Below, in pieces: positions 11,601-26,313 of a stretch of 64,000 bases of DNA. The notes under the pieces are model-generated. The model was not told the DNA's origin. It did not search any database and saw only the letters and a list, made by a program, of their open reading frames with translations. Location of the stretch: positions 1 through 64,000 of the forward strand of contig JAJDZX010000037.1 in NCBI GenBank assembly GCA_022824395.1, read 5' to 3'. The DNA is from Alphaproteobacteria bacterium (GTDB lineage: Bacteria; Pseudomonadota; Alphaproteobacteria; TMED109). The position numbers and the translations under genes are program-made. The stretch's first letter is position 1, and each line of letters begins with the position of its first letter.

Positions 11601-11682
11601 CGGCGGTTTTCGCCATTCACCCCGGGGTATTTGAGCCTGATGCTCGATGCGTTTGCAACACACATCGTTCGGAGGGCCGGCC

Positions 11683-11943
11683 ATGCGCACCACGCTCAAT
11701 ATCGACGACGACCTGCTGCTTGCGGTCAAGGAAATCGCGAGGCGCGACTGCCAATCCATCGGCGGGGCGGTGTCCGACCTGCTCCGCCGGGCTCTGGCGG
11801 GCGGCGAGCCCTGCGAAACGGAGATGGCGGAGAAACAGGCGCCTTTCAGGACGGCTGAGTTCGGCTTCCGTCCGTTTCCGCCGCGCGGCGGCGTCGTCAC
11901 CAACGAGCTGATCGACCGGCTGAGGGATGAGAGCGGCGGCTGA
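11683..11943 (+). CDS. VapB-type antitoxin
   Basis: This 86-residue protein starts with a ribbon-helix-helix-like segment (RTTLNIDDDLL, then VKEIARRDCQSIGGAVSDLL), the DNA-binding part of this antitoxin class. The C-terminal half, with GFRPFPPRGGVVTNELID, is the usual toxin-wrapping tail. The ATG at 11683 has a GGAGG site 7 bases upstream. Its stop overlaps the start of the toxin gene (TGATG), so the two are translationally coupled. It is predicted to repress its own operon and neutralise the PIN toxin. Confidence 0.85.
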   Translation: MRTTLNIDDDLLLAVKEIARRDCQSIGGAVSDLLRRALAGGEPCETEMAEKQAPFRTAEFGFRPFPPRGGVVTNELIDRLRDESGG

Positions 11944-12371
11944 TGCGCGCCCTGCTGGACATCAATGTGCTGATCACGCGGCTCGACGCCCAGCACCTCC
12001 ACCACGAACCGGCCTGGCGCTGGTTCCGGGACAATGCCCGGCACGGCTGGGCCACCTGTTCGCTGACGCGCAACGGATGTGTCCGGGTCATGTCGCAGCC
12101 GGCCTATCCGGGCAACCTGCCGCCGCGCACCGTCGCCGCCCGGCTGCGCACCGCGGTCGCCGGAGACCACCACCGCGCGTGGACGGACGATGTGGACCTT
12201 CTCGACCCGGGCACGATCGACTGGCGTCATGTCTTCGGCCCCCGGCAAATCGCGGATTTCCACCTGCTGGCGCTGGCCGTCGCCAATGGGGGACGGTTCG
12301 TCACCTTCGACACCCGTATTTCGCCCGACGCCGTGATCGGCGCGCACGACCGCCACTTCTGCGTGAGCTGA
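11943..12371 (+). CDS. VapC-type PIN-domain toxin
   Basis: This 142-residue predicted ribonuclease has PIN-domain acidic residues D6 (LLDINVL), D105 (QIADFHLLALA) and D123 (TFDTR). The second usual acid, in the LTxNG segment near residue 44, is asparagine, as is common in the subfamily with CSLTRNGCVRV. RNA cleavage in the cytosol is expected when the antitoxin is degraded. It starts inside the antitoxin stop codon. Confidence 0.85.
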   Translation: MRALLDINVLITRLDAQHLHHEPAWRWFRDNARHGWATCSLTRNGCVRVMSQPAYPGNLPPRTVAARLRTAVAGDHHRAWTDDVDLLDPGTIDWRHVFGPRQIADFHLLALAVANGGRFVTFDTRISPDAVIGAHDRHFCVS

Positions 12372-12577: not shown

Positions 12578-13417
12578 TTGCGTTTATGGGCGCTCTCTGA
12601 CCTTCATGTCTCCCATCCGGCGAACCGGGAAGCGCTGGAGAGCTGCCCAGTATTTCACGACGACTGGCTGATTCTCGCAGGCGACGTGACCGACGGGCCC
12701 AAGCGGCTTGACTGGTGTTTTCAGCAACTGACCGGGAAATTCCGCCAAGTCGTCTGGGTTCCCGGCAACCACGAGCTCTGGACCGTTCCCGGCACCGCGC
12801 CCGGACTGCGCGGCGTCGCGCTCTACGAGAGGCTGGTCGCACTCGCTCGCAGCCACGGTGTCCTCACCCCGGAAGATCCCTATCCGGTGATCCAGCTGCG
12901 GGACCGTGCGGTTCTGATCGCGCCACTGTTTCTGCTCTACGACTACAGTTTTCGGCCCCGGCACGTTCGGCGTCACGAGGTGATCCGGTGGGCTCGCGAA
13001 ACCGGCGCCGTCGCCTCTGACGAGGTGGTTCTGCATCCCGACCCGTTTCCGGATCGGGAATCATGGTGCGCGGCGCGCTGCCAGGAGGCCGCCCAACGGC
13101 TTGCGTCGTGCCCTGCCAGCGTTCCAAAGGTTCTGATCAACCACTTTCCGCTTGAAGAACAGCATGCCGTGCTGCCGCGGGTTCCCCGCTTCACGCCGTG
13201 GTGCGGAACGCGCCGAACGCGCGGATGGCACCGGCGCTTCAACGCGTGCGCGGTGGTCTACGGCCACCTCCACATCCGGGGTACGCAGTGGCTGGACGGC
13301 GTGCCGTTCCAGGAAGTGTCGCTGGGATATCCGCCGCAATGGGACCGGCAGCTTGGGGTCGGCGCCTACCTGCACGAAGTGACCCTGACCCCGTCGCCGA
13401 GTGCCGCTCCCCAATGA
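12578..13417 (+). CDS. Calcineurin-like metallophosphoesterase
   Basis: This 279-residue protein has the full metal-binding set: D8 and H10 in SDLH, GD at 35-36, GNHE at 63-66, NHFPL in the middle, and YGHLH near the C-terminus. The substrate is unknown. The start is TTG at 12578, the first codon giving the conserved RLWALSDLH opening; no ATG is available near it. The stop overlaps the ATG of the phosphopantetheinyl transferase by ATGA, so the two are made together. I recall this type of phosphoesterase beside Sfp-like transferases in other polyketide loci; a role in carrier-protein turnover (removing phosphopantetheine) is a guess. Confidence 0.85.
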   Translation: MRLWALSDLHVSHPANREALESCPVFHDDWLILAGDVTDGPKRLDWCFQQLTGKFRQVVWVPGNHELWTVPGTAPGLRGVALYERLVALARSHGVLTPEDPYPVIQLRDRAVLIAPLFLLYDYSFRPRHVRRHEVIRWARETGAVASDEVVLHPDPFPDRESWCAARCQEAAQRLASCPASVPKVLINHFPLEEQHAVLPRVPRFTPWCGTRRTRGWHRRFNACAVVYGHLHIRGTQWLDGVPFQEVSLGYPPQWDRQLGVGAYLHEVTLTPSPSAAPQ

Positions 13418-14157
13418 ACGGCGGCGGCGACACCTGGTGGAGCACCTGGCGCGAGACGGAAGGCTCACTCATCCTCCACGTCGATCTCAGGCCCGACCCG
13501 GACCGCGAACAACAGGCCCTCGCGGTCCTCGACCGCGACGAGCAGGCCCGGTGGAAGCGCTTCCTCGCCAAGGGTGCCCAGCGGCAGTATGCACTTTGCC
13601 GCGCGGCGCTCAGGTTGAACCTTTGCGAACGGCTGGGTTGTGCCAACCAGACACTGTCGTTCGGTTATCGCGAACATGGCAAGCCATTCGCGAAGGTGAA
13701 CGGAGCGCCGGCCGACGTGCGCTTCAACGTGAGCCACAGCGGTCAGCACGGCCTGATCGGCTTCACGCGACAGGACGAATTCGGGCTGGATCTGGAAGTG
13801 CGCACGCCGGGCAGGGATTTCGACGGTATCGGGAGCACCGTCTACGGGCCGCGGGAGCGCCGCGCCTTGTCCGCGGCCACTGGAAGCGCGAAAGCGCACT
13901 TGTTCTACCGGCTCTGGGGCCTCAAAGAGGCCCTGATCAAGGCATTGGGCACCGGCTTCTCCCTGAGCCCGGCCCGGTTCGAAGTCCCGGAGCCGATACT
14001 TGACGGGGCACGAGGCGCGGTGTTCCACTTTCCGCACCGGCCGGCCGACCCGTTCTGGCTGGAAGATTTGGGAGAGCCTCGATTTGCGGCCGCATATGCC
14101 TGCCGGATGAAGGCTGGAGACAGTGTGCCAAGAACAGGACATCCCCTCCGCGGCTAG
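13414..14157 (+). CDS. Sfp-type 4'-phosphopantetheinyl transferase
   Basis: This 247-residue enzyme moves phosphopantetheine from CoA onto the serine of carrier proteins. The motifs are FNVSHSG (104-110), G-L-D-L-E (124-128, with metal-binding D126 and E128) and WGLKEALIKALG (168-179, K171 and E172). The two-lobe size marks it as the Sfp/AcpT-long type that serves polyketide or peptide synthases rather than the short AcpS. The ATG at 13414 overlaps the phosphoesterase stop. It probably activates the ACP of the large synthase and perhaps the free ACP-like protein next door. Confidence 0.92.
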   Translation: MNGGGDTWWSTWRETEGSLILHVDLRPDPDREQQALAVLDRDEQARWKRFLAKGAQRQYALCRAALRLNLCERLGCANQTLSFGYREHGKPFAKVNGAPADVRFNVSHSGQHGLIGFTRQDEFGLDLEVRTPGRDFDGIGSTVYGPRERRALSAATGSAKAHLFYRLWGLKEALIKALGTGFSLSPARFEVPEPILDGARGAVFHFPHRPADPFWLEDLGEPRFAAAYACRMKAGDSVPRTGHPLRG

Positions 14158-14553: not shown

Positions 14554-14784
14554 ATGGCGTCGACAGAAGAACGTTTGAGGCAGCCCGGCCGAGGCAACCT
14601 TGGTCTAGATCACGAGCCGGACTCTGACCGGACGTTCAGCAATTCCGGGGTCTCGTCCGTCGAATCGGTGGCGTCTTTCAAAGTGGCGAATGACGAATTT
14701 CAGCTGAACCCCGTGGCAGGGGAAGGCGCAGAGTTTGAGACTCTGCGCAACCTTACGACCCACATAGATTCCCGCGCCGGCTGA
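14554..14784 (+). CDS. Diverged stand-alone acyl-carrier-like protein
   Basis: This 76-residue protein aligns by eye end to end with free acyl carrier proteins: MASTEERLRQ at the start, then GVSSVESVASFKVANDEF at 32-49 in place of the usual GADSLDxVELVMALEEEF, and FETLRNLTTHI in the last helix. S35 falls where phosphopantetheine is attached. Departures are S34 for the usual Asp, and P11-G-R-G14 inside helix I, which should disturb it. The start at 14554 gives normal ACP length and has AGAGGA upstream; ATG 14494 would add 20 residues. It lies between the transferase and the hydrolase, opposite a synthase that ends without an ACP. Whether it folds and is modified is untested. Confidence 0.6.
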   Translation: MASTEERLRQPGRGNLGLDHEPDSDRTFSNSGVSSVESVASFKVANDEFQLNPVAGEGAEFETLRNLTTHIDSRAG

Positions 14785-14951
14785 TCAATTTCAGGAGTTT
14801 CGGGCCTCTTGCAGCCGGCAGCTCAAACTTCCGTAACACAGACCGGGCGTCTCCGAATTCGGGGGCAGTCGGTTTTGTTGTCGCGACACCAACAGGTCAC
14901 CAGATCGTGTCGCTGTGAGGCTACCATCGCCGAAGAAACCCGCCTTTCACG

Positions 14952-15854
14952 ATGACGGCAAGAACGATGTGGGACATTCCAAAACCCGTTTCCGTTTGCG
15001 ACGTAGGCCTCGACGAAAACACCGTCACCACCGTCCGCCGACATGGCGACCCGAATGCCGATATACGCCTTGTCGTGAGCCACGGCAGCGGGCTTGCCGT
15101 CGATCTCTACTATCCGTTCTGGTCTGAACTGGCTGACGATTTCGAGCTGGTCATCTACGACGTCAGAAACCACGGCTGGAATAGCGTGGGTCCTCAGCAG
15201 AAACACAATATTCCCACCCTGATTAACGATCACGATGTCATTTTCGACGCCGTCGAGCGCAGCTATGGGACTAAACCAACGGTAGGCGTGTTCCATTCGC
15301 TGACCGCACTCGTGGCACTGTTGTCTCTGACCGAACGATATTCGGCCTTGGTCCTGTTCGACCCGCCATTGTGCAAGTCTGGCGCGAACCAGCTGGAGCT
15401 ACATGAAGCCGCTGAACGCGCGGCCACCCTGATCCGGAAGCGGGGTCAGCATTTCAGGACGCGGGCGGAGTTCGCGCAGTTCCTGCAGGTGCTTCCAACG
15501 TTCGCGCGGTTTGTCCCCGGCGTGACGGAACTGATGGCGGAAACCACGCTTCGACCGGTCTTAAAGGGCGAAGGCTATGAACTGCGCTGTCCACGAGAAT
15601 ACGAGGCCCAGTTGATGGAGTACACTCGGAGCTTCTTTCCCCTGCTGAATCTGGACATCCTCTACTGCCCGACAAAGATCATCGGAGGCGACCCAACCAT
15701 TCGCAACGCCTACCTCCCGAGCCTGGACCTGGGACAGGTTTCCGCCCTGGACTATGATTTTCTGCCCAACTCCACGCACTTTCTTCAGTTGGAGCAGCCG
15801 GCCGAGTGCGCAGCTATCACACGCGCGTTCCTGACCGAACTGGCACTCGGATAA
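14952..15854 (+). CDS. Alpha/beta hydrolase, possible chain-release enzyme
   Basis: This 300-residue hydrolase has HGSG (44-47) as the oxyanion loop, a serine nucleophile at S116 in GVFHSLTAL, and a catalytic histidine at H276 in NSTHFLQLEQP. The nucleophile elbow is H-S-L-T rather than the usual G-x-S-x-G, so an assignment by motif alone would miss it. No signal peptide is present. It follows the ACP-like gene by 167 bases on the same strand and is convergent with the polyketide synthase, which has no thioesterase. Release or editing of the acyl chain is therefore a reasonable but unproven role. Confidence 0.75.
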   Translation: MTARTMWDIPKPVSVCDVGLDENTVTTVRRHGDPNADIRLVVSHGSGLAVDLYYPFWSELADDFELVIYDVRNHGWNSVGPQQKHNIPTLINDHDVIFDAVERSYGTKPTVGVFHSLTALVALLSLTERYSALVLFDPPLCKSGANQLELHEAAERAATLIRKRGQHFRTRAEFAQFLQVLPTFARFVPGVTELMAETTLRPVLKGEGYELRCPREYEAQLMEYTRSFFPLLNLDILYCPTKIIGGDPTIRNAYLPSLDLGQVSALDYDFLPNSTHFLQLEQPAECAAITRAFLTELALG

Positions 15855-15918
15855 GGATCACGCAGCAGGCATCGATTGGCGTCGCTTCCTCGCCGCGACC
15901 GCCAGTCGGCGTACCGGC

Positions 15919-18900
15919 TTAGCCCGAATCTTTCTGAAGCCAGAAGCGTTGCCGCTGGAACGGATAGTCGGGCAGCGAAATCCTGCGTCGTTGTTCACCC
16001 GCAAATAACCCCGCGAAGGAAACCGGCAGTCCGGCCTCGTAGGCCCCGCCAACCGCCTGCAGGAAACCGGTATCGAAGTGTCTCGTCCCGTTAGCAGACG
16101 CGGACAGGACGCTTGGCAGCAGTGTCGGCGTTCCGAGATCAGTCGTCGATACCGGCCACTCACGAGCTAACTTGGGCCCCAGCGCCGCTTCCGAGCCGAT
16201 CTCTATGATCAACCGAACCTCCAGCTCGGCCAACGTGCCAGCGCAGCGCTCGATCGGCGACCGCGCTCGAAATTGCTGATCCCAATACGCTGCATCCAGC
16301 TCCTTGCCCGGCTCAACCAGTCGGCCAGTCAAGCTGTTCACGAGACTGATGGAGGGTGCGGCAAGCATGGTCCCCTCCAGCACAGATTTGAGTTCGTCGC
16401 CAGCATCCGGAGCGGTCGCACCGTTCGAGCGCCTTCCGAGCAGCACCCCGCGTGTCGCAGCGAGCCGAAGCCCGTCCTCCAACCCGAACACGCCGGCGGC
16501 CTGCGCGGCGGCGATTTCTCCCACGCCCTGCCCGCCCACGACGCTGGGCCTGATGCCTACACTTGACCACAGGGCGGTAAGCGCGCAGGCCAGCGCATAC
16601 AACGCGGGCTCGCGCCACGCCGGTTGTTCGAGCGTTCCGTCCGACCCTGGCCGATCGAAGATCGAGTCCAGCAGCGACATCTCCCGCTCTTCGCGCAGTA
16701 CTTCCTCGCAGCGGTCCAAGACCCTTCGTGCCACGGGCTCGCTCTCGTACAGATCTTCGCTGAGATCCATCCACCGCCCGATCTCGTCCGAGTACGCGAA
16801 CGCGACTTTCGCAACGCTTGCCGGCTTCATGTCGTGGTTGGCGGCAGCGACCGTCGTCAATTGCTGTCGCAGCGAGGCAACATCACGAAACACCATGCCG
16901 GCACGGCATGCGAGATGACTCCGCCCCACGCCGGCGGTCCAGGCCATGTCGGAGAGACGCGGATCGGACGCTTCCAGATCCGGCCCTAGTGCGCGACCGG
17001 TTTCGTCAAGCCACGCCAAGTACCGCGCCGCCAGAGACTGCAGCGCTTCGCTTGACTTGGCGGAGAGAGGCAGCAAGCGCGCCCCGCGCAGGCCATCCGC
17101 TTCGCGGGTTTCCGCGAGTTCCCCAACGCCCTCCGGCAAGTCGGTACGGACACTTAGCGCGGACCCCTTGGGCGACCACGGCTCCTCTCCATCGCGACCG
17201 CTGTCCGCTCCGTGTCCCTCCAGCACGACGTGTGCGTTCACGCCCGAAATTCCGAACGCACTGACGCTTGCCCGGGGCGGACGATCCGGCGTGGCAGGCC
17301 ATCCCGTCGTCGATATCGGCACTTGCACCGGCAGTTGGTCCCACTCGACGAGAGGACTTGGCTCGTGGAAGTTCAGGTGCGGCGGGATCACCCGCCGCTG
17401 CATCGCCAGCACTGCCTTGATCAAACCTGCAATGCCTGCGGCCGATTCCAAGTGTCCGATGTTGGTCTTGACTGAACCGATCAGCAGCGGGCGACCCTCT
17501 GCGCGCCCTCTGCCGTAGATGTTGGCGGCGGCCTGCACTTCAATTGAATCGCCGAAGGCGGAACCAGCCCCGTGCGCCTCAAGATAGTCCACCTCCGATG
17601 GGTCGATGCACGCTTGCAGGAGGGCCTGCTCGATCACCTGCTCCTGCGCCAGGCCGTTCGGAACCGTCGGTCCAGCGCTCGCACCGTTCTGATTGACCGC
17701 CGAGCCGCGGATCACCCCCCAGATGCGATCACCATCAGCCTCTGCTTCCGGGAGTCTTTTGAGGACGACCATGCCGCAACCCTCGCCGCGCACGAAGCCA
17801 TCCGCAGAAGCATCGAAAGTCATGCACCGGCCGTTCCGCGACAACAATCCCAGGTCTGCCATCTCTCGGGTGACCGGTGCCGACAGCACGGCGCTTGCTC
17901 CTCCAGCCAGGGTCAGGTCCGCTTCGCGCAGACGCAGAGCGTTGACCGCTTGGTGGACTGCCACCAGCGACGAGGCGCAGTTCAGCTCGACCGGCATCGT
18001 CGGCCCGGACAGTCCGAAGTAGAAGGCGAGGCGCCCCACCGCCATGCTTGCAGCGGTGCTCAAGTAGCCGATGCCGTAGTCGCTGTTCTTCATGAGGTCC
18101 CGGTACTCGCTTGTGGCGATACCCGCATACACCCCGGTGCGACTCCCCTTCAGCTGGTCCGGATCGATTCCCGCGTCTTCGAATGCCTGCCACCCCACCT
18201 CCAGCAGGATTCGCTGCTGAGGATCCATCAAACGTGCCTCGATCGGTTTTATCCCGAAGAATCTCGCATCGAACTGGTCGATACCGTCGATGAACCCGGC
18301 TCGGCCGTACGCAGCGTACTGAGGCGGGAGATTGTCGAGAAAATCGCTCCAGGGGCGCGCTTCGCCGCGTGCGTCCGTCACCGCGTCGGCACCGGAGTCG
18401 AGCTGCTGCCAGAACTCCCGGAGGTTTGACGCTCCGGGGAACCGGCAGGCCATGCCCACGATTGCGACGGCCTCCGCCGTGTCGTCGGGATCTCGACGAG
18501 ATGCTGGCCTCGGCGCCGGTTCGGCCGGTTTTACCGGAGCGGCCGCTCCCACCGCCTCGGCGAGTTCTTCGGCCAGGTGAGCGGCAAGGGCCTCGATAGT
18601 CGGGTAGTCGAACACCGCCGTGTTGGACACCGTGTGCGCGTCTGCCAGTGCCCGGTTCAGGCGATTGCGCAGCTCCACCGCCATCAGGGAATCCATCCCC
18701 AGGTCAAAGTAGCCCACCGTGGCGGGCGGTGTGCTCGGAAGCCTCAGGACTGCCTTGACCTCTTCCTGCAGAAACGACACGAGCACTTCCTCACGCGTGC
18801 CCGCAGGTGCATCCCGCAGCCTGGACAACAGGTCCTGGGACGAGGAGGTTTGCACGTCGTCCTCCGAATCGTCGGACAGCACTTCCTCCAGGAACGGCGG

Positions 18901-21900
18901 GCGGACCTCGAGCGATTCGCCGAACGTCTCCCAATCCCGGGCCAGCACCACACCAGTCGCAACGTCCTCGCGCACCAGCCGATCGAAGGCTCGAAGACCC
19001 TGATGCGGGGTGATCCACTCGATTCCGCTGGTTGCCGAACGCTGGGTCATCCGCTCGCGCTGCTCCTCGGCCTCGCCGATGTCGGACCAGGCACCCCAGG
19101 CAATGGCCTGGCCGGGAAGACCGAGTGCGCGCCGGTGGGCGGCCAGCACATCCAGAAACGCGTTGGCCGCCGCATGATTGGACTGACCGGGGTTGCCGAG
19201 CACGCCGGCGACGCTGGAGAACAGAACAAACATGTCCAGGTCGCGTTCGGCCGTCGCGCGGTGCAGGTGCCATGCGCCCAGCAATTTCGGCCACAGCACC
19301 TTCTCGAACGTCTCCCAGCGCTGATTTCCGATCGCAGCGTCGGCCAGGACGCCCACGCTGTGGATGACGCCCCCGAGCGGCGGCAATGCCTCATCCATCC
19401 GGCCCAGCATGGCGTCGATCGCACCCGCATCTGTCACGTCCGCAAGTTCCACGCGAACGGTTGCGCCGCGCCGGCGAAGTGCCTCGATCTCCTCCTCGAC
19501 TTCAGGATCCGGCGGGCGCCGGCCGTTGAGCACGATCGAGCCGGCGCCGCGTTCGGCCAGCCAGCCTGCGACCGCACAGCCGATGCCCCCGAGTCCGCCG
19601 GTCACGAGGTAGGTCCGGTCCTCGCGGAGCCGGCCGCGCGCGAGCGGCGTGTTCGTGAAGACGATCTTGCCCATGTGCCGGCCCGCCTGCATGCACGCCA
19701 TCGCCGGGCCCGCCTCCGCCAGCGGCCATCTCGCGTGGGGAAGAGGCGTCAACGTTCCGGCTGCCAGCATCCCGAGCACCCGCTGCAAGATCGCCCCCGC
19801 CCGTACCGGGTCCTCTTCCTTCAGGGCATCGATCGCGAGGATGTCGTAGCCGACATCCGGCCGAACGGCCGTCATCTCCTCTTCGCTGAGGATGTCGACA
19901 CGGGCCATCTCGACGAAACGGCCGCCTTCCGCCAGACAGGAAAGGCTCGCGTCGATGAACCCTACGCCGGTCAGGCTGTTGAGCACCATGGTGACCCCGG
20001 CGCCGTCCGTGGCATCCAGGATTTCCTTGCCGAACGAGGTCGAGCGGCTGTCGAACACGTGCTCCACGCCGCAAGCGCGCAGGAAGTCCCGCTTCCGCTC
20101 GCTCGCCGTGGCAAACACTTCGGCGCCCGCCGCCCGGGCCAACTGGATCGCCGCAAGCCCGACACCACCGGCGCCAGCGTGAATCAGCACGCGGTCCTCG
20201 GCACGCAGTCCCGAGAGTTCGAATGACAATGCGGCCGACACGAACGCCGTCGGAATCGTCGCCAGCTCGGTAACCGAGAACCCGTCCGGTGCGGGCGCCA
20301 CCATCTCTTCCAGCGTCACCGTTTCGGACCCAAAGGCGCGGAAGGTCAACCCGACGACGCGGTCGCCGGCGGCGACCCGCGTGACCCCGGGCCCGACGGC
20401 CAGCACCCGGCCGCAGAACTCACCCCCCATGAAGTCGTCGACGAGCCCGATGGCGATGAAGACGTCCCGGAAATTGAGGCCAAACGCATCGATCGTGGCC
20501 CGGATCTCGCCCGGCTCAAGGGCGCGTTCCGGCAGCGCCTCCACGCGAATCTGGTCAAGCGCGCCACCAGCATCCGGTGCCAGCGCCCAGCCCGGCTCTT
20601 CCGGCAAGGCCATTCGATCGGTCACCGCGGCAGCGGGGACCAGCCGGGCGCACTGGCGACGGCCGAAACGGTAGGCGACGTGGGTCTCGAGATCGGGGTA
20701 CAGCAGTTCGTTCACGAGCGCGGCACCCGGTGTCGGCCCGGCCGGATCCAGGTCCAGCATCCTCGGCCGCAGCTGTGGCGACTCGCGGGCCATCACCTTG
20801 CCGAGGCCCCACAGCGTGGCGCCGGCCGGTTCTCCACCGCGTTCCATCTCCAGCACCTGGGCCCCGCGCGTGACGAACCACGACCCCCTGGACGGTTCCA
20901 CATCGGCTTCCAGCGCGCCCTGCGCCAGCGCGAGGGCGCTCGCTGTCGTCCGCTGCACGTCCTCCGCCATCTGGCGCGTGGTCGCCTGGGGCCCGCGCCC
21001 GTCCAGCCCGAGGCCATGCACGATGCCGGCCAGCGGGGCGTCTCCCGGCAGGTCCTGCAGCAAGGATGTCCACGCCGCCCGCTGTTCCGTATCCACGGAC
21101 CGCTTGACCACGCCGGCGGGGCACGGCGCCGCCTCGTCCGCGGCGGCGCTCTCCGGGCGGACCAGCACGACGGTCTGATTGTGCATGGCCAGCTCCCCGG
21201 CCAGATCGTCGACGATGCCGCCGCGGCTGCCGGCCAGCACCCACACGCCGGGCGCCTCGGTCACCGCGGCCGGTCCCTGCGCCACGATGACGCCCCGGTC
21301 GGGGTTCGCCTTGGGATCGGTCTCGTCGAATCCCAGGATCGCGATGTCCCCGAAGCCCGCATCGCTCAGCGCCTGGCGCCACACGGCGGGCCTCGCCAGG
21401 GCGTGGTGCGGACGGTAGCGGTCGGCGAACCGCCACCAGCCATCCAGTTGTCCGAAGGTCAGGTCGAGCCACCCCTGGGAGCGCAGGTTCTCCAGCGCCA
21501 TCAGCTGACCCGCCGGCGCCAGGAGCAGGCGACAGTGTGCGAGGGTCTCGTCCAGATACTTCGTGGCGTGCAGCACATTGGACGCGATCAGGAGGTCATA
21601 CCCGTGTCGGTCGAAGCCCTGGTCGACCGGGTCCTTCTCGATATCGAGCACGCGATAGTCGATGGAGGCTTCGCGCCCTCCGAAACGGGCCTCGGCTTCT
21701 GCGAAGAAGCCTGCCGATATGTCGGTGTAGACGTAGTCGAAGGCTCCTTCGGGCAGCTCGGGCAGCACGGCGGCAGTCGCCGACCCGGTGCCAGCTCCGA
21801 TCTCCAGGACGCGCAGCCGGCGTCCCGGCGGCACGGTCTTCAGCAGGGTCGCGGTCGCTTCCGCGAGCATGCGGTTCGCCGCTCGCGCCACCGGTGCCTT

Positions 21901-24900
21901 CAGGTACAGGTCTGCGGCGGTCGGCTCGCCACTGCTGAACAGGAGCGTCAGCGGGTCCGCTTGCCCGCGAAGGACGTCGGGCAGGGCGGCGGCGCTGCGG
22001 CGGAACAGCCCGATCTCGTTCGAACCGTGCGCGTACCGCTCGGCCATCCCGGCGGCAAGCGCGTCGGGATTTTCCGCCACCGCCGCCGGGAGCGGCTGCC
22101 CCGACGCGGTGACAACGCGAAAGCCGTCACCGGCCTCTTCCAGGACCCCGACGCGCGCGAGCATCTCCAGCAGACGACGGAACAGCCGCTCGTGCTCCTC
22201 GCCCACCTCCAGGTGCTGCCGCAGCACCGAGGACTCCACCGCGGCCCCGGCGACGCGATCCCAGCCCAACCCGTCGAGCGCCGCGACCGCGTTGACGTGC
22301 GCCAGGCGTTCCAGGTCGGTGAGCAGGGCCGCCCGATCGTCCGCACCGACGCCTTCGTTTTCGAGATAGGCCGTAAAGAGACCGGTGTCGGCAGCAATGT
22401 CCGCGGGCGGGGTCAGGAAGTCCGCGGGCGGCATCCCCGGCGGCAGGACGCTGTCACGCCAGACGACCCGATACAACAGGTCGTCGATCCCCTCGATCGC
22501 CGAGAGCAGGGCCGCGCGAGTGGCCCGCTTCACCGTAAAGCCGCTCAGCTCGCCAACCGGCTGACCATCTCGGTCGTAGAGATACAGGTCCGCTGCCCAG
22601 ACCTCCGGGAGACCGGCATTCTCCGGCTCCGTCGCTGCGCCCTCCGGGCCCGCCCGCATGCGCACGTGGCAGATCAGGCGTTCCGGCAGCCGATCCGGCA
22701 GCCACAGCCGCTCCCACGCGAAGGGCAGGTACGTGGATCCGTCCTCGTCGCCACCCGCGCCCCGGGCCGCCCCCATGACCTGGAAACAGCCGTCGAGCAC
22801 GAGCGGGTGCACATCGAACCGGTTGCCTTCGAGCGCTGCCGGGAGCGCCACCTCCCCGACCGCCTCGCCGGGTCCCGACCACAGCCCCTCCAGGGTGCGG
22901 AAGGACGGCCCTAGATCGATGCCGACGGCGGCCTTGGCCCCGTAATAGGCCGGCAGGTCCACCGGCGAGAGACCGGCCGTGACGCTCTCGAAATCAAGCG
23001 GCGGGGCCGCTTGCGGCGCGGACAGGGAGGTCGAGATTCGCCCTTCCGCATGCAGCGTCCATTTCTCCTCGCCGTCGCCCCGACTGAGCAGGCGAACGCG
23101 GCGCGACAGGTCGTCTTCGGAATCCCCGAGCAGGACCTGCAGGCGCCGGCCGCGCGAATCCGCGGATTCGTCGGCGCCGTCGTCCCGGAAAACCAGCGCC
23201 GTCTGGATCTGGAAATCCTCGACGACGGCCGAGACACTCCCCTCGGCGACGGACGCCGACGCGGCCATGGCCCCGTACAGCGCGCCGGGCGCCACCAGAT
23301 GACCAAACACCTGGTGGTCGCTGAGCCAACCCGGATCGGACGGCAGCACTTCCGTGTCAAACGTGACTTCGCCGCTGGCCGACTCGTGCCGCTCGCCCAG
23401 CAGCGGATGACCAGCAACGCGCCGTCGTCGCTTCGGGGCCTCGATCCAATGACGCTCCCGCTGGAACGGGTAGCCGGGCAGCGATATCCGGCGCCTCTGT
23501 TCGCCGGCGAAGAGGCCTGCAAAATCGATCGGCACGCCAGCCTCGTAGGCACCGGCGACCGCCTCCGTGAACCCGCCGCCGGAGCCCGGAGTAGGCGGCT
23601 CCTCGTCCTTCGACGGCCGCCGCAGGCTGGCCAGCACCGTGGGCGCGGCGTTGGCCGCCGTCTCCGGCCAGGCGAGGGTCGTCATGGGACCGAGCACGCC
23701 GTGCGGGCCAATCTCGACGACCATGTCCACGCCTTCGGCGGCCAGGGTCTCGACGCATGCGCGGAACGCGACCGGCTCGCGGGCCTGGCGCAACCAGTAG
23801 GCCGAATCGAGAGCGTCGGCTGCCTCGATGACCTGGCCTGTCAGGTTGCTGACGAAGGTCAGCGACGGCCGTGCGAACGTGATCTGGGAAAGAACCGCGG
23901 CCAGATCGTCCAGCGCGGGTTCCACCATGGCGCTGTGATAGGCGGGGCTCTTCCGCAGCCGGGCCACGCGGACATCCTGTGACGCGAGATGCTCGAGGTG
24001 GGCCTCGATCTCGTCCAGCGGACCGCTGATGACCTGATGCGCACCGTTGTCAGCGGCGATGCATAGCCCCATGCCCGGTGAGGACGCATTGTGTTCGTCC
24101 AGCATGGCGGCGACCCGTTCGGGCGGAGCGAATACCGCCCCCATCGCACCGTCCCCCGGCAAGGCCCCGATCAGCGCACCCCGCGCCGCCGCGAAACGCA
24201 GCCCTTCCTCGAGACCGAATACGCCCGCGGTATGCGCGGCCGCGATTTCCCCAAGGCTGTGCCCGATCACGACGTCCGGCCGAATTCCGATGCTTGACCA
24301 CAATGCCGTCAGCGCGCACTCCAGCGCATAGATCGCGGGCTGCTTCCACTGCGGATCGTCCAGGTCTCCCGTGGTGCCGGGACGGCCGAACATCACGTCC
24401 AGCAACGACCCGCCGCGCCGCTCTTCCCTGAGCAGCGCATCGCAGCGGTCGAGGACCGAGCGCACGACGGGTTCGGATTCATAGAGTGCGGCGCCCATCC
24501 CGACCCACTGGCTGGCCTGGCCGGTATAGGCGAACGCCACCTTCTCGGGCGGGCGCCGGTCCCCGCCGGTTTCGACCCCGGCAAGCGCCTGCACGCCTTC
24601 GCGCAATGACCCGGCATCGTGGAACACCACGCCGGCGCGGAAGCCGAAGTGACTTCGCCCGACGCCTGCCGTCCAGGCCAGGTCAGCGAGCGTTTCGGCG
24701 TCCTGGCCGTCGGCAGCCAGCGCATTCGTCCGCTCGTCCAGCCACGCAAGATGCTGTGTCGCCGCCGCGCTGAGCGCCGCGACGGACTTGCCGGACAGCG
24801 GCAACAGGCGGGCGGTCCGCCGGGCCAGCGATACTTCCGCCTCCTGCTCCCCCGCCATGGGAAGCGGCACGGTCACCCGCTTCGCCGCGCCTGCCGCCCA

Positions 24901-26313
24901 GGCTTCGGGACCTCCGGCAGCCGCGCCGTCCGGCCTGCCGTATCCCTCCAGGATGATGTGGGCGTTCGTGCCCGACCAGCCGAAACCGCTGACGCCTGCC
25001 CGCGGCGAGCGCGTACCGGTGCCTGGCCATTCGGTCGGCGTCGCCGTGACCTGTAGCGGAAGTCGGTCCCAGTCCATCGCCGGATTCGGCGTCCGGAAGT
25101 GGAGATGCCTGGGAATGATCCCCCGGTTCATCGCCAGGATGACCTTGATCACGCCGGCCACGCCGGCAGCGGCCTCCAGATGGCCGATGTTGGTCTTCAC
25201 CGAGCCGATCAGCAGCGGCCGGTCCGCCTCCCGTCCGTGGCCGTACGCCGTTCCCGTCGCCTGCACCTCGATCGGGTCTCCGACCTCGGTGCCCGTGCCG
25301 TGCGCCTCGACATAGTCGACCTGCATGGGCGGAATCCCGGCCCGCTGCAATGCCGCCGCAATGACCTTCTCCTGGGCGGGCCCGCTCGGCACGGTCAGCC
25401 CGGGACTCGCTCCATCCTGGTTGAGCGCGGAGCCCCGGACCACGCCCCAGATCCGGTCGCCGTCGGCCTCGGCGTCGGCAAGGCGCTTGAGCACCACGAT
25501 TCCGCAGCCCTCGCCCCGCACGTAGCCGTTCGCCTCCGCATCGAAGGTCGCACAGCGTCCGTCCGGCGAGAGCATCCCCGCCTTGGCGCGCAATTCCAGC
25601 AGGCGCCCGGACAGGATCGTATGCACCCCTCCCGCCATCGCGAGATCGGCCTCGCCGCGCTGCAGACCTGACACGGCCTGGTGAATCGCCACCAGTGACG
25701 ACGAGCAGGCCGTGTCGACCGCAAGCGCCGGCCCCTCCAGCCCGAGCGCGTAGGCGACCCGCCCAATGGCCGTGTTGAAGGACGTTCCAGTCACTGCGTA
25801 CAGGCTGGAAGCCGGCTCGGCGGTCTCGCCCATATCCATGATCAGGCCGCGGTACTCGTTGTTGCTGATCCCCGCATAGACGCCGGTGCGACTGCCCTTG
25901 AGGCGGTCGGGATCCATGCCCGCGTCTTCCAGCGCCCGCCAGCACGTTTCCAGCATCAGCCGCTGCTGCGGATCCAGCATCTGGGCCTCGACCGGCGAGA
26001 TGCGGAAAAAGGCGGCGTCAAACTGGTCAAGCTCCTCGAGATACGCACCGAAGCGGCATGCGCGGGGCTCCACATCTGCGTCGGGGAACAGTTCGCCGAT
26101 GCGGCCGACACCGGAGCCGGGAATCCCTTCCGTCACCGCGTTCACGCCGCCGTCCAACAGGCGCCAGAAGGCGGGAAGATCGTCTGCTCCCGGGAAGCGG
26201 CAGGCCATACCGACGATTGCGATCGGTTCGCAATCCCCAGAGATTCCTCGTTCCGGCGCGTGGGAGGCGCCTGACGAAGCTCGCGAAGGCTGGCGGGAAA
26301 CGTCTCGGTTCAT
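15919..26313 (-). CDS. Type I polyketide synthase: KS-AT-DH-MT-ER-KR-ACP-KS-AT(inactive)
   Basis: This 3464-residue cytosolic megasynthase has nine recognisable domains. KS1 spans 28-457 (C203 in DTACSSS, H338, H378). AT1 spans about 590-885 (S686 in GHSLGE, H793 in PAYH, closest to the malonyl-type HAFH). DH spans about 965-1265 (H1000 and P1009 in HxxxGxxxxP, D1174). The C-methyltransferase spans about 1350-1680 (LEIGAGTG 1503-1510). A degenerate linker precedes ER, about 1912-2222 (HAGAGGVG 2045-2052). KR spans about 2231-2460 (TGGLGGIG 2238-2245, D2325 of an LxD motif, B-type; the usual catalytic Tyr is H2380). ACP spans about 2500-2585 (S2542 in GMDSL). KS2 spans 2613-3035 (C2779 in NCASSL, H2914, H2954). 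AT2 spans about 3168-3390 and has GQGVG in place of GHSxG, with about 74 residues deleted. The protein ends after the post-AT linker, with no second ACP and no thioesterase. Module 1 predicts a fully reduced, methyl-branched chain. The order is that of fungal highly reducing synthases and, from memory, of the mono-modular Sup-type synthases of sponge symbionts. The phosphopantetheinyl transferase, free ACP-like protein and hydrolase lie on the facing strand. Confidence 0.95.

What the first reader, a model, noticed from the sequence alone, without database searches (positions are those of the whole stretch)
14554..26313. Polyketide synthase ending in KS-AT(inactive), facing a free ACP-like protein and a hydrolase
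The synthase has one complete, fully reducing C-methylating module followed by a second KS and a dead AT, then stops with no ACP and no release domain. On the opposite strand, within 2.5 kb of its 3' end, lie a diverged free carrier protein, an alpha/beta hydrolase, a phosphopantetheinyl transferase and a phosphoesterase. Together they could form a split system: module 1 acting iteratively, KS2 passing the chain to the free carrier, and the hydrolase releasing it. I know of no described system with exactly this set.
Basis: partly seen in the sequence, partly recalled or inferred. Interest (0 to 1): 0.85.

Follow-up and report, generated by a model that had tools for sequence, protein, structure and literature searches.

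The report
Sponge-symbiont polyketide synthase with split ending
This gene belongs to a family of lipid-making enzymes found in many unrelated bacteria, apparently of marine sponges, and its odd ending (a spare condensing unit with a dead loading domain, accompanied by a separate carrier protein and a separate hydrolase) is a fixed feature of the family rather than a broken gene.

Summary
Window 15919-26313 (-) encodes KS-AT-DH-MT-ER-KR-ACP-KS-AT and stops at the post-AT linker; a diverged free ACP, an alpha/beta hydrolase (HYD) and a PPTase point at its 3' end. It is not a one-off. Of 393 HYD relatives in GTDB genomes I examined the best 79 loci: 68 carry the synthase in the flank, and the other 11 genomes hold a family synthase. 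A free ACP is in the flank of 69 and in the genome of 9 of the other 10. Of 61 closed KS2 ORFs, 60 stop right after the linker; one is frameshifted. By motif AT2 is dead in 61 of 61, while KS2 keeps Cys in 70 of 70 and both His in 66. In 385 Alphaproteobacteria genomes, strong matches to synthase, HYD and ACP fall in the same 8. KS2 is an old duplicate of KS1. I read it as the known sponge 'Sup' PKS family (inferred; SupA sequences not held) with a split release step: KS2 passes the chain to a free ACP, HYD frees it. The mechanism is inferred. Corrections: the window ACP looks decayed and an intact copy lies on contig C13; the phosphoesterase is a bystander.

The parts
15919..26313 (-). Type I PKS, 3464 aa, KS-AT-DH-MT-ER-KR-ACP-KS-AT(0)
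   Evidence: full-length orthologues of 3524 aa (G001) and 3442 aa (G002); frames of 3484 (G003) and 3488 aa (G005)
24946..26229 (-). KS1, DTACSSS/HGTGT/KTNIGH, DPQQ present
23620..24534 (-). AT1, GHSLGE and PAYHS; active by motif
   Evidence: second-His motif in 64 of 64 AT1
22507..23409 (-). DH
21214..22317 (-). C-methyltransferase
19654..20565 (-). ER
19081..19614 (-). KR with catalytic Tyr replaced by His (66 of 67 aligned family KRs; 1 gapped)
18574..18771 (-). ACP1 (DSL)
17089..18483 (-). KS2: Cys and both His kept, unusual NCASS and HGAGS motifs
16114..16833 (-). AT2, dead by motif: Ser replaced, second-His motif absent
15922..16113 (-). post-AT linker ...YPFQRQRFW... then stop
14554..14784 (+). 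free ACP, degraded copy (Ser codon near 14656 kept; 11 of 43 conserved positions changed)
14952..15854 (+). alpha/beta hydrolase (HYD), triad S116-D247-H276 inferred
13414..14157 (+). phosphopantetheinyl transferase (start inferred)
   Evidence: a PPTase lies within 2.5 kb upstream of HYD in 21 of 79 loci

Best explanation
A Sup-type (sponge symbiont ubiquitous) lipid-making type I PKS with a split release step. SHOWN by sequence: one complete, fully reducing, C-methylating module; a terminal KS2 with conserved catalytic residues; an AT2 dead by motif; no ACP or TE after it; a free ACP and a serine hydrolase that travel with the synthase. INFERRED: module 1 acts iteratively with malonyl units and SAM to build a methyl-branched saturated acyl chain on ACP1. 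KS2 takes the finished chain onto its Cys and passes it to a free, PPTase-activated ACP, either by one last condensation with malonyl-ACP (loaded by AT1 or FabD in trans) or by plain transacylation. HYD then hydrolyses or otherwise takes the acyl group off that ACP. KS2-AT2 is an old duplicate of KS1-AT1 whose AT was lost. In this genome the working ACP is probably the intact copy on contig C13, not the degraded one in the window.
For: Layout conserved across loci whose record titles name Alpha- and Gammaproteobacteria, Acidobacteriota groups, Nitrospirales, Gemmatimonadales and Latescibacterota. Ending fixed: 59 of 61 closed KS2 ORFs end 10-23 residues from the start of the YPFxR linker motif, L146 likewise with YPFQH, L115 frameshifted; three more closed ends in L153, L157 and L158 are alike. 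KS2 Cys 70/70, first His 66/70, second His 70/70. AT2 Ser in 2 of 61, second-His motif in 0 of 61, against 64 of 64 for AT1. Free ACP Ser 76/76; HYD Ser, His, Asp 82/82. Strong matches to synthase, HYD and ACP in the same 8 of 385 Alphaproteobacteria genomes. ACP in the genome of 9 of 10 loci lacking it in the flank; family PKS in 11 of 11. KS1 and KS2 are separate clades. Multimodular synthases of L105's genome end in KS-AT(0) with a HYD paralogue 0.4 and 2.2 kb beyond. Top Foldseek hit of the HYD model is the curacin TE, 3qit.
Against: No biochemistry. KS2's first His is lost in L131, L132, L136 and L156, and the terminal KS of L229 lost both, so condensation cannot be general. No free ACP was found in L107's genome. 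Among the 8 co-occurring genomes, the G381 KS2-AT2 match has an internal TGA and the G304 KS1 match a TAG: decay or sequence error. PPTase is near HYD in only 21 of 79. The alpha/beta fold is very common (1144 matches at E<=0.001), so 3qit is weak evidence. HYD family members also exist without a nearby PKS (paralogues at 33-39%). Sup membership rests on traits, not on a comparison with SupA sequences.
Confidence: 0.58

Rival explanations
1. KS2-AT2 is a non-catalytic structural remnant (dimer or scaffold end); module 1 alone makes the product and HYD releases it directly from ACP1.
For: AT2 is dead by motif in 61 of 61 and in some loci much shortened (144-212 aa from KS2 end to stop in L095, L096, L097, L155, L145, L141 and L115, the last frameshifted). 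The first KS2 His is lost in 4 of 70.
Against: KS2 Cys 70/70 and second His 70/70 while AT2 decays beside it; a scaffold needs no Cys. A free ACP would have no role, yet it co-occurs.
Confidence: 0.15
2. The free ACP and HYD act at the start or in editing: the ACP brings a starter acyl group to KS1, or HYD clears stalled chains; KS2 works with another carrier such as the housekeeping ACP.
For: ACP and HYD are separate genes and unlinked from the synthase in some genomes: in G003 and G005 the ACP-HYD pair is beside prs, away from the PKS, and in several of the 79 loci no PKS domain is in the flank.
Against: The commonest arrangement has HYD at the synthase's 3' end (53 of 79 convergent); G003 and G005 keep an ACP at the 3' end, and L153, L157 and L158 have one just after the PKS stop. 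A synthase ending in KS lacks a carrier, which a free ACP would supply.
Confidence: 0.2
3. In this genome the locus is decaying and the ACP beside it is non-functional, so the window is a half-dead copy.
For: Window ACP has 11 of 43 conserved positions changed against 0-4 (of 40-43) in 12 others. Family loci do decay: KS fragments beside ACP at four prs loci, a second G006 copy with a TAG.
Against: PKS and HYD frames are intact with catalytic motifs, and an intact ACP is on C13.
Confidence: 0.07

Closest known systems
Sup (sponge symbiont ubiquitous) type I PKS family, Fieseler et al. 2007
   Same: Passages seen: small monomodular PKS of bacteria-rich sponges, proposed for branched fatty acids (PMC4245539; PMC9864124 states the role as fact), found in MAGs of several phyla (PMC9426513). 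KS1 here has DPQQ and HGTGT, the motifs of the primers whose identified KS amplicons were over 99% supA in P. halichondrioides.
   Different: The passages seen do not mention a terminal KS-AT(0), free ACP, PPTase or hydrolase. Fieseler 2007 and Hochmuth 2010 are not held, so they may already describe them.
Swf (sponge widespread FAS) cluster
   Same: Sponge-linked monomodular type I PKS; a PKS with its signatures is in this same genome at G000:C2.
   Different: KS-AT-DH-ER-KR-ACP with swfB and swfC, DPQ[IV] and HATGT motifs; the window PKS has DPQQ, HGTGT, an MT and a second KS-AT.
Mycobacterial MAS/Pks2-type iterative PKS
   Same: Single fully reducing module making branched acyl chains (recalled); MAS is the best PDB match to the KR.
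   Different: No terminal KS-AT (recalled); NCBIfam Pks2 model 1433.3 bits against a cut-off of 2400.
Split modules and non-elongating KS0 of trans-AT PKS (recalled)
   Same: KS and its ACP on different proteins; some KS only transfer chains.
   Different: AT1 here is intact in cis, and KS2 keeps its first His in 66 of 70.

Membership tests
Sup PKS family | Type I PKS found across phyla of sponge symbionts | tested here: inconclusive
   79 loci from many phyla by record title. Several bin-name series I recall as sponge projects; the source of the jk18 and p16 bins was not verified.
Sup PKS family | One complete module, able to make methyl-branched chains | tested here: met
   KS-AT-DH-MT-ER-KR-ACP.
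Sup PKS family | KS carries the DPQQ and HGTGT motifs of the published primers | tested here: met
   KS1 has DPQQR and HGTGT.
Sup PKS family | KS falls in the published SupA clade | not testable with these tools
   No SupA sequence at hand; founding papers not held.
Sup PKS family | Permease neighbour (SupE on pAPKS18, named in PMC3908369) | tested here: inconclusive
   A permease (EmrB-like by my reading, no family search run) is beside ACP-HYD in L081-L083; not in the window; identity to SupE not testable.
Swf cluster | DPQ[IV]R and HATGT motifs, no MT | tested here: not met
   Window PKS has DPQQ, HGTGT and MT. G000:C2 PKS has DPQVR, HATGT, GHSSGE, CALVEL.
Trans-AT PKS | No active AT in cis | tested here: not met
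   AT1 GHSLGE and PAYHS intact; second-His motif in 64 of 64 AT1.
Type I PKS, NCBIfam NF045894 | Score over curated cut-off | tested here: met
   2032.6 against 1740 bits, summed over 5 stretches.
Sulfolipid-1 Pks2 (NF041183) | Score over curated cut-off | tested here: not met
   1433.3 against 2400 bits.

The most novel reading that the evidence does not exclude
Sponge symbionts share a transferable chain-ending device: a duplicated KS-AT whose AT died early became a dedicated off-loading KS that hands the finished chain to a free ACP for a trans hydrolase. The device is independent of the number and type of modules (one in most loci seen, several in a Bryobacterales genome) and of gene order, and has spread across phyla as a synthase/ACP/hydrolase set.
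Probability: 0.4. Interest if true: 0.75.

Novelty: new member of a known kind. Interest (0 to 1): 0.55.

Why it matters
Sup PKSs are reported to dominate the PKS genes of bacteria-rich sponges, and most passages I saw call the product only proposed (one states it as fact). That the synthase ends in KS-AT(0) and travels with a free ACP and a hydrolase says what would be missing from an attempt to express the synthase alone, and makes product and release step testable in a small reconstitution (synthase, PPTase, free ACP, hydrolase).

Tried and rejected
Recent truncation: rejected. Inversion as the cause of the different gene order in G001, G002 and G006: not an inversion, since relative to the flanking genes ACP-HYD keeps its strand while its position relative to the PKS changes. 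Phosphoesterase as part of the set: rejected (1 of 79 loci, L109). KR Tyr-to-His as unique: rejected, a Nostoc PKS has it too. Fusion of the ACP to AT2 in a relative: none found among the closed ORFs. Transporter as a fixed part: not supported (that clustering left out frames within 600 bases of a PKS domain hit, so its counts are lower bounds and a small gene there could be missed). A weak KS hit beside ACP in G005 looked like chance, but KS fragments recur at all four prs loci, E from 3e-9 to 0.004. A TGA reported inside two ACP frames looked like decay; for G426 it is the ACP's own stop, for G425 not checked. Literature for the terminal KS, free ACP and hydrolase set in Sup: searches listed no paper in which I saw it described; I saw listings and passages only, and the founding papers are not held.
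Full report
What is there. The PKS at 15919-26313 (-) is one 3464-aa frame with Pfam order KS-AT-DH-MT-ER-KR-ACP-KS-AT. It stops after the post-AT linker. On the + strand, pointing at its 3' end, lie a PPTase (about 13414-14157), a free ACP (14554-14784) and an alpha/beta hydrolase, HYD (14952-15854); a metallophosphoesterase is further upstream. The window is part of contig C31 of a 3.75-Mb draft genome, which has four KS-family matches: KS1, KS2, a second PKS on C2, and a partial match on C7.

The same genus. HYD orthologues (68-74% identity) are in 5 of 6 other same-genus genomes and in none of the 21 other-genus genomes of the family searched. PKS orthologues are in the same five. G004 has neither: no HYD match and only a 34%-identity KS match. 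The PKS is full length and ends in KS-AT in G001 (3524 aa) and G002 (3442 aa); G003 and G005 have 3484- and 3488-aa frames in the same order; G006 is split by contig ends and has a second copy of the end with a TAG. Gene order differs. In G001, G002 and G006 the PKS is divergent from ACP-HYD with two genes between that I read by eye as an EmrAB-like pair. In G003 and G005 an ACP sits at the PKS 3' end, at the same chromosomal site as in the window (HemY-YkuD on one side, ApbA-porin on the other), and a second ACP with HYD lies beside prs. At four prs loci (L028, L029, L042, L043; prs 99-100% identical) KS fragments stand on the strand opposite to the ACP, E from 3e-9 to 0.004, so a PKS probably stood there too.

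Beyond the genus. One scan of GTDB genomes with the HYD alignment confirmed 393 relatives; the best 80 were kept as 79 distinct loci, and only these were examined. In 68 of 79 the PKS is in the flank: 53 convergent downstream of HYD as in the window, 6 same strand downstream, 5 divergent upstream, 4 same strand upstream. Of the other 11, L104, L105, L108 and L150 hold only AT2 or linker pieces beside HYD, and seven hold no AT2 or linker match (one of them, L088, has a KS fragment). All 11 of those genomes hold a family PKS at E<=1e-120. In G430, G432, G434 and G419 the best match there is at the 55-57% identity that KS1-AT1 would give, so a KS2 is not proven for those four by that call; for G430 a terminal KS of KS2 type is shown. 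A free ACP is on the same strand within 1.6 kb upstream of HYD in 64 of 79 and anywhere in the flank in 69 (6 of the 79 have less than 1.6 kb upstream); a PPTase is within 2.5 kb upstream in 21. For the 10 loci without an ACP, 9 genomes hold one: L085 and 8 of 9; the exception is L107's genome. For L153, L157 and L158 that ACP lies just beyond the fetched flank on the same contig (contig lengths agree) and just after the PKS stop, and those three PKS end at the same linker. Clustering other frames near HYD found PKS, ACP, HYD and PPTase frames recurring in 27 or more loci, besides antisense or out-of-frame readings; the next real genes reach 9 (ABC transporter) and 8 (Rieske type, by eye). That clustering masked frames within 600 bases of PKS domain hits, so counts are lower bounds.

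Co-occurrence control. In one even draw of 385 Alphaproteobacteria genomes, the KS2-AT2 region matches at E<=1e-259 in 8 genomes, HYD at E<=1e-140 in the same 8, and ACP at E<=2e-23 in the same 8. I set these cut-offs after seeing the gap. Weaker matches lie outside the eight: two genomes for the PKS (best E 1.2e-148, limit 1e-120), six for HYD (best 7.6e-56, limit 1e-40), one for ACP (9.3e-9, limit 1e-8). The eight lie in four families, so they are not eight independent events, and some of their sequences are in the query alignments (A1: G000, G003, G006; A2: several). Two of the eight carry an internal stop in a PKS match (G381, G304). In 72,556 plasmid records HYD has two matches at about 30% identity, and the 12 listed of 744 KS2-AT2 matches are at 38-43%.

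The ending. Of 61 closed ORFs bearing KS2 (window, G001 and G002 included), 59 end 10-23 residues from the start of the YPFxR linker motif; L146 does the same with YPFQH; L115 is frameshifted. No ACP match lies after KS2. AT2: the Ser position is Ser in 2 of 61, another residue in 52, gapped in 7; the second-His motif is in 0 of 61, against 64 of 64 AT1. KS2: Cys 70/70, second His 70/70, first His 66/70; motifs are mostly [NTQA]CA[SA]S and H-x-x-x-S. Free ACP: Ser 76/76 (69 loci, window included). HYD: Ser, His and Asp 82/82 (80 loci).

Origin. In a midpoint-rooted FastTree of KS domains, KS1 (19 of sufficient length) and KS2 (70) are separate clades (support 1.0 and 0.952), joined (0.996) apart from 9 outgroup KS. 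With shorter KS1 pieces and five G430 domains added, KS1 (57) stays a clade (0.895); KS2 with the two G430 terminal KS forms a clade (0.987), though KS2 alone is then unsupported (0.083) and the tie of the two internal KS of L228 to KS1 is weak (0.107). So KS2 most likely came from one old duplication. The genome of L105 (Bryobacterales by title) has longer synthases: ACP-[KS-AT-DH-MT-ER-KR-ACP]x2-KS-AT (5' end cut by the stretch fetched) and ...KR-ACP-KS-AT-DH-KR-ACP-KS-AT (cut by the contig end). HYD paralogues (41-42%) lie 2.2 kb and 0.4 kb beyond their 3' ends. Their three internal ATs have both motifs; the first terminal AT has GHG and no His motif, and neither motif was found in the second. 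The terminal KS of the second keeps Cys but lost both His. So the ending does not depend on module number.

The window's ACP. It differs at 11 of 43 positions shared by at least 11 of the 12 others; those 12 differ at 0-4 of 40-43. An intact ACP is on contig C13 of the same genome, so the working carrier is probably that one.

HYD. AlphaFold2 model, mean pLDDT 83.4; Foldseek's first hits are the curacin thioesterase 3qit, but 1144 matches pass E<=0.001. By sequence profile there are three weak PDB matches, the best at 8.9e-5.

Mechanism. The anatomy supports iterative chain building by module 1, capture by KS2, transfer to a free ACP, and removal by HYD. Against a general condensing role stand the losses of the KS2 His in a few lineages; for it, the retention in 66 of 70. 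I leave condensation versus transfer open.

What is known. Passages of PMC4245539, PMC3908369, PMC9864124, PMC9426513, PMC10308959 and PMC4210886 treat Sup, or a sponge-specific KS clade likened to it, as a sponge-linked PKS family; among them they report dominance among KS amplicons, several phyla, and methyl- or mid-chain-branched fatty acids as proposed product (stated as fact in PMC9864124). The window PKS fits by module, KS1 motifs and distribution. The founding papers are not held, so I cannot say whether the terminal KS-AT, free ACP and hydrolase were already noted there. The second PKS of this genome carries the printed Swf signatures, so it is likely the other sponge family.

Noticed in passing
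L044:5313-12482 (G000:C2): Second PKS of the same genome, 2390-aa frame, with Swf signatures DPQVR, HATGT, GHSSGE, CALVEL, followed by 589- and 881-aa frames where swfC- and swfB-like genes would be expected (their identity was not tested).
   Followed up: partly
L217:5881-6108 (G000:C13, -): Intact second copy of the free ACP, with matches to the EmrA/EmrB-like genes about 4.6 kb away.
   Followed up: yes
L028, L029, L042, L043 (prs loci): Decayed KS fragments on the strand opposite to ACP (HYD shortened in L042 and L043), probably a former PKS site.
   Followed up: partly
L228, L229, L230 (G430): Multimodular relatives ending in KS-AT(0) with HYD paralogues (41-42%) 2.2 and 0.4 kb beyond the 3' ends.
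   Followed up: partly
L231, L232, L233: In three Latescibacterota records (by title) the free ACP follows the PKS stop within about 0.1 kb by coordinates, on the same strand; read out for L233.
   Followed up: partly
window 19162-19182: KR catalytic Tyr is His in 66 of 67 aligned family KRs (1 gapped); also in a Nostoc PKS.
   Followed up: partly
window 11647-12371: Small gene plus PIN-domain gene (PIN match below the Pfam cut-off), a VapBC-like pair by my reading; matched in G001 at the same place, no match listed in G002.
   Followed up: no
G006:C75:970-3468: Second copy of the PKS end in G006 with one internal TAG.
   Followed up: no
G000:C83:132545-133423 and L030-L038: HYD paralogues (33-39%) in same-genus genomes; no PKS domain matched within the fetched 20 kb.
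   Followed up: partly
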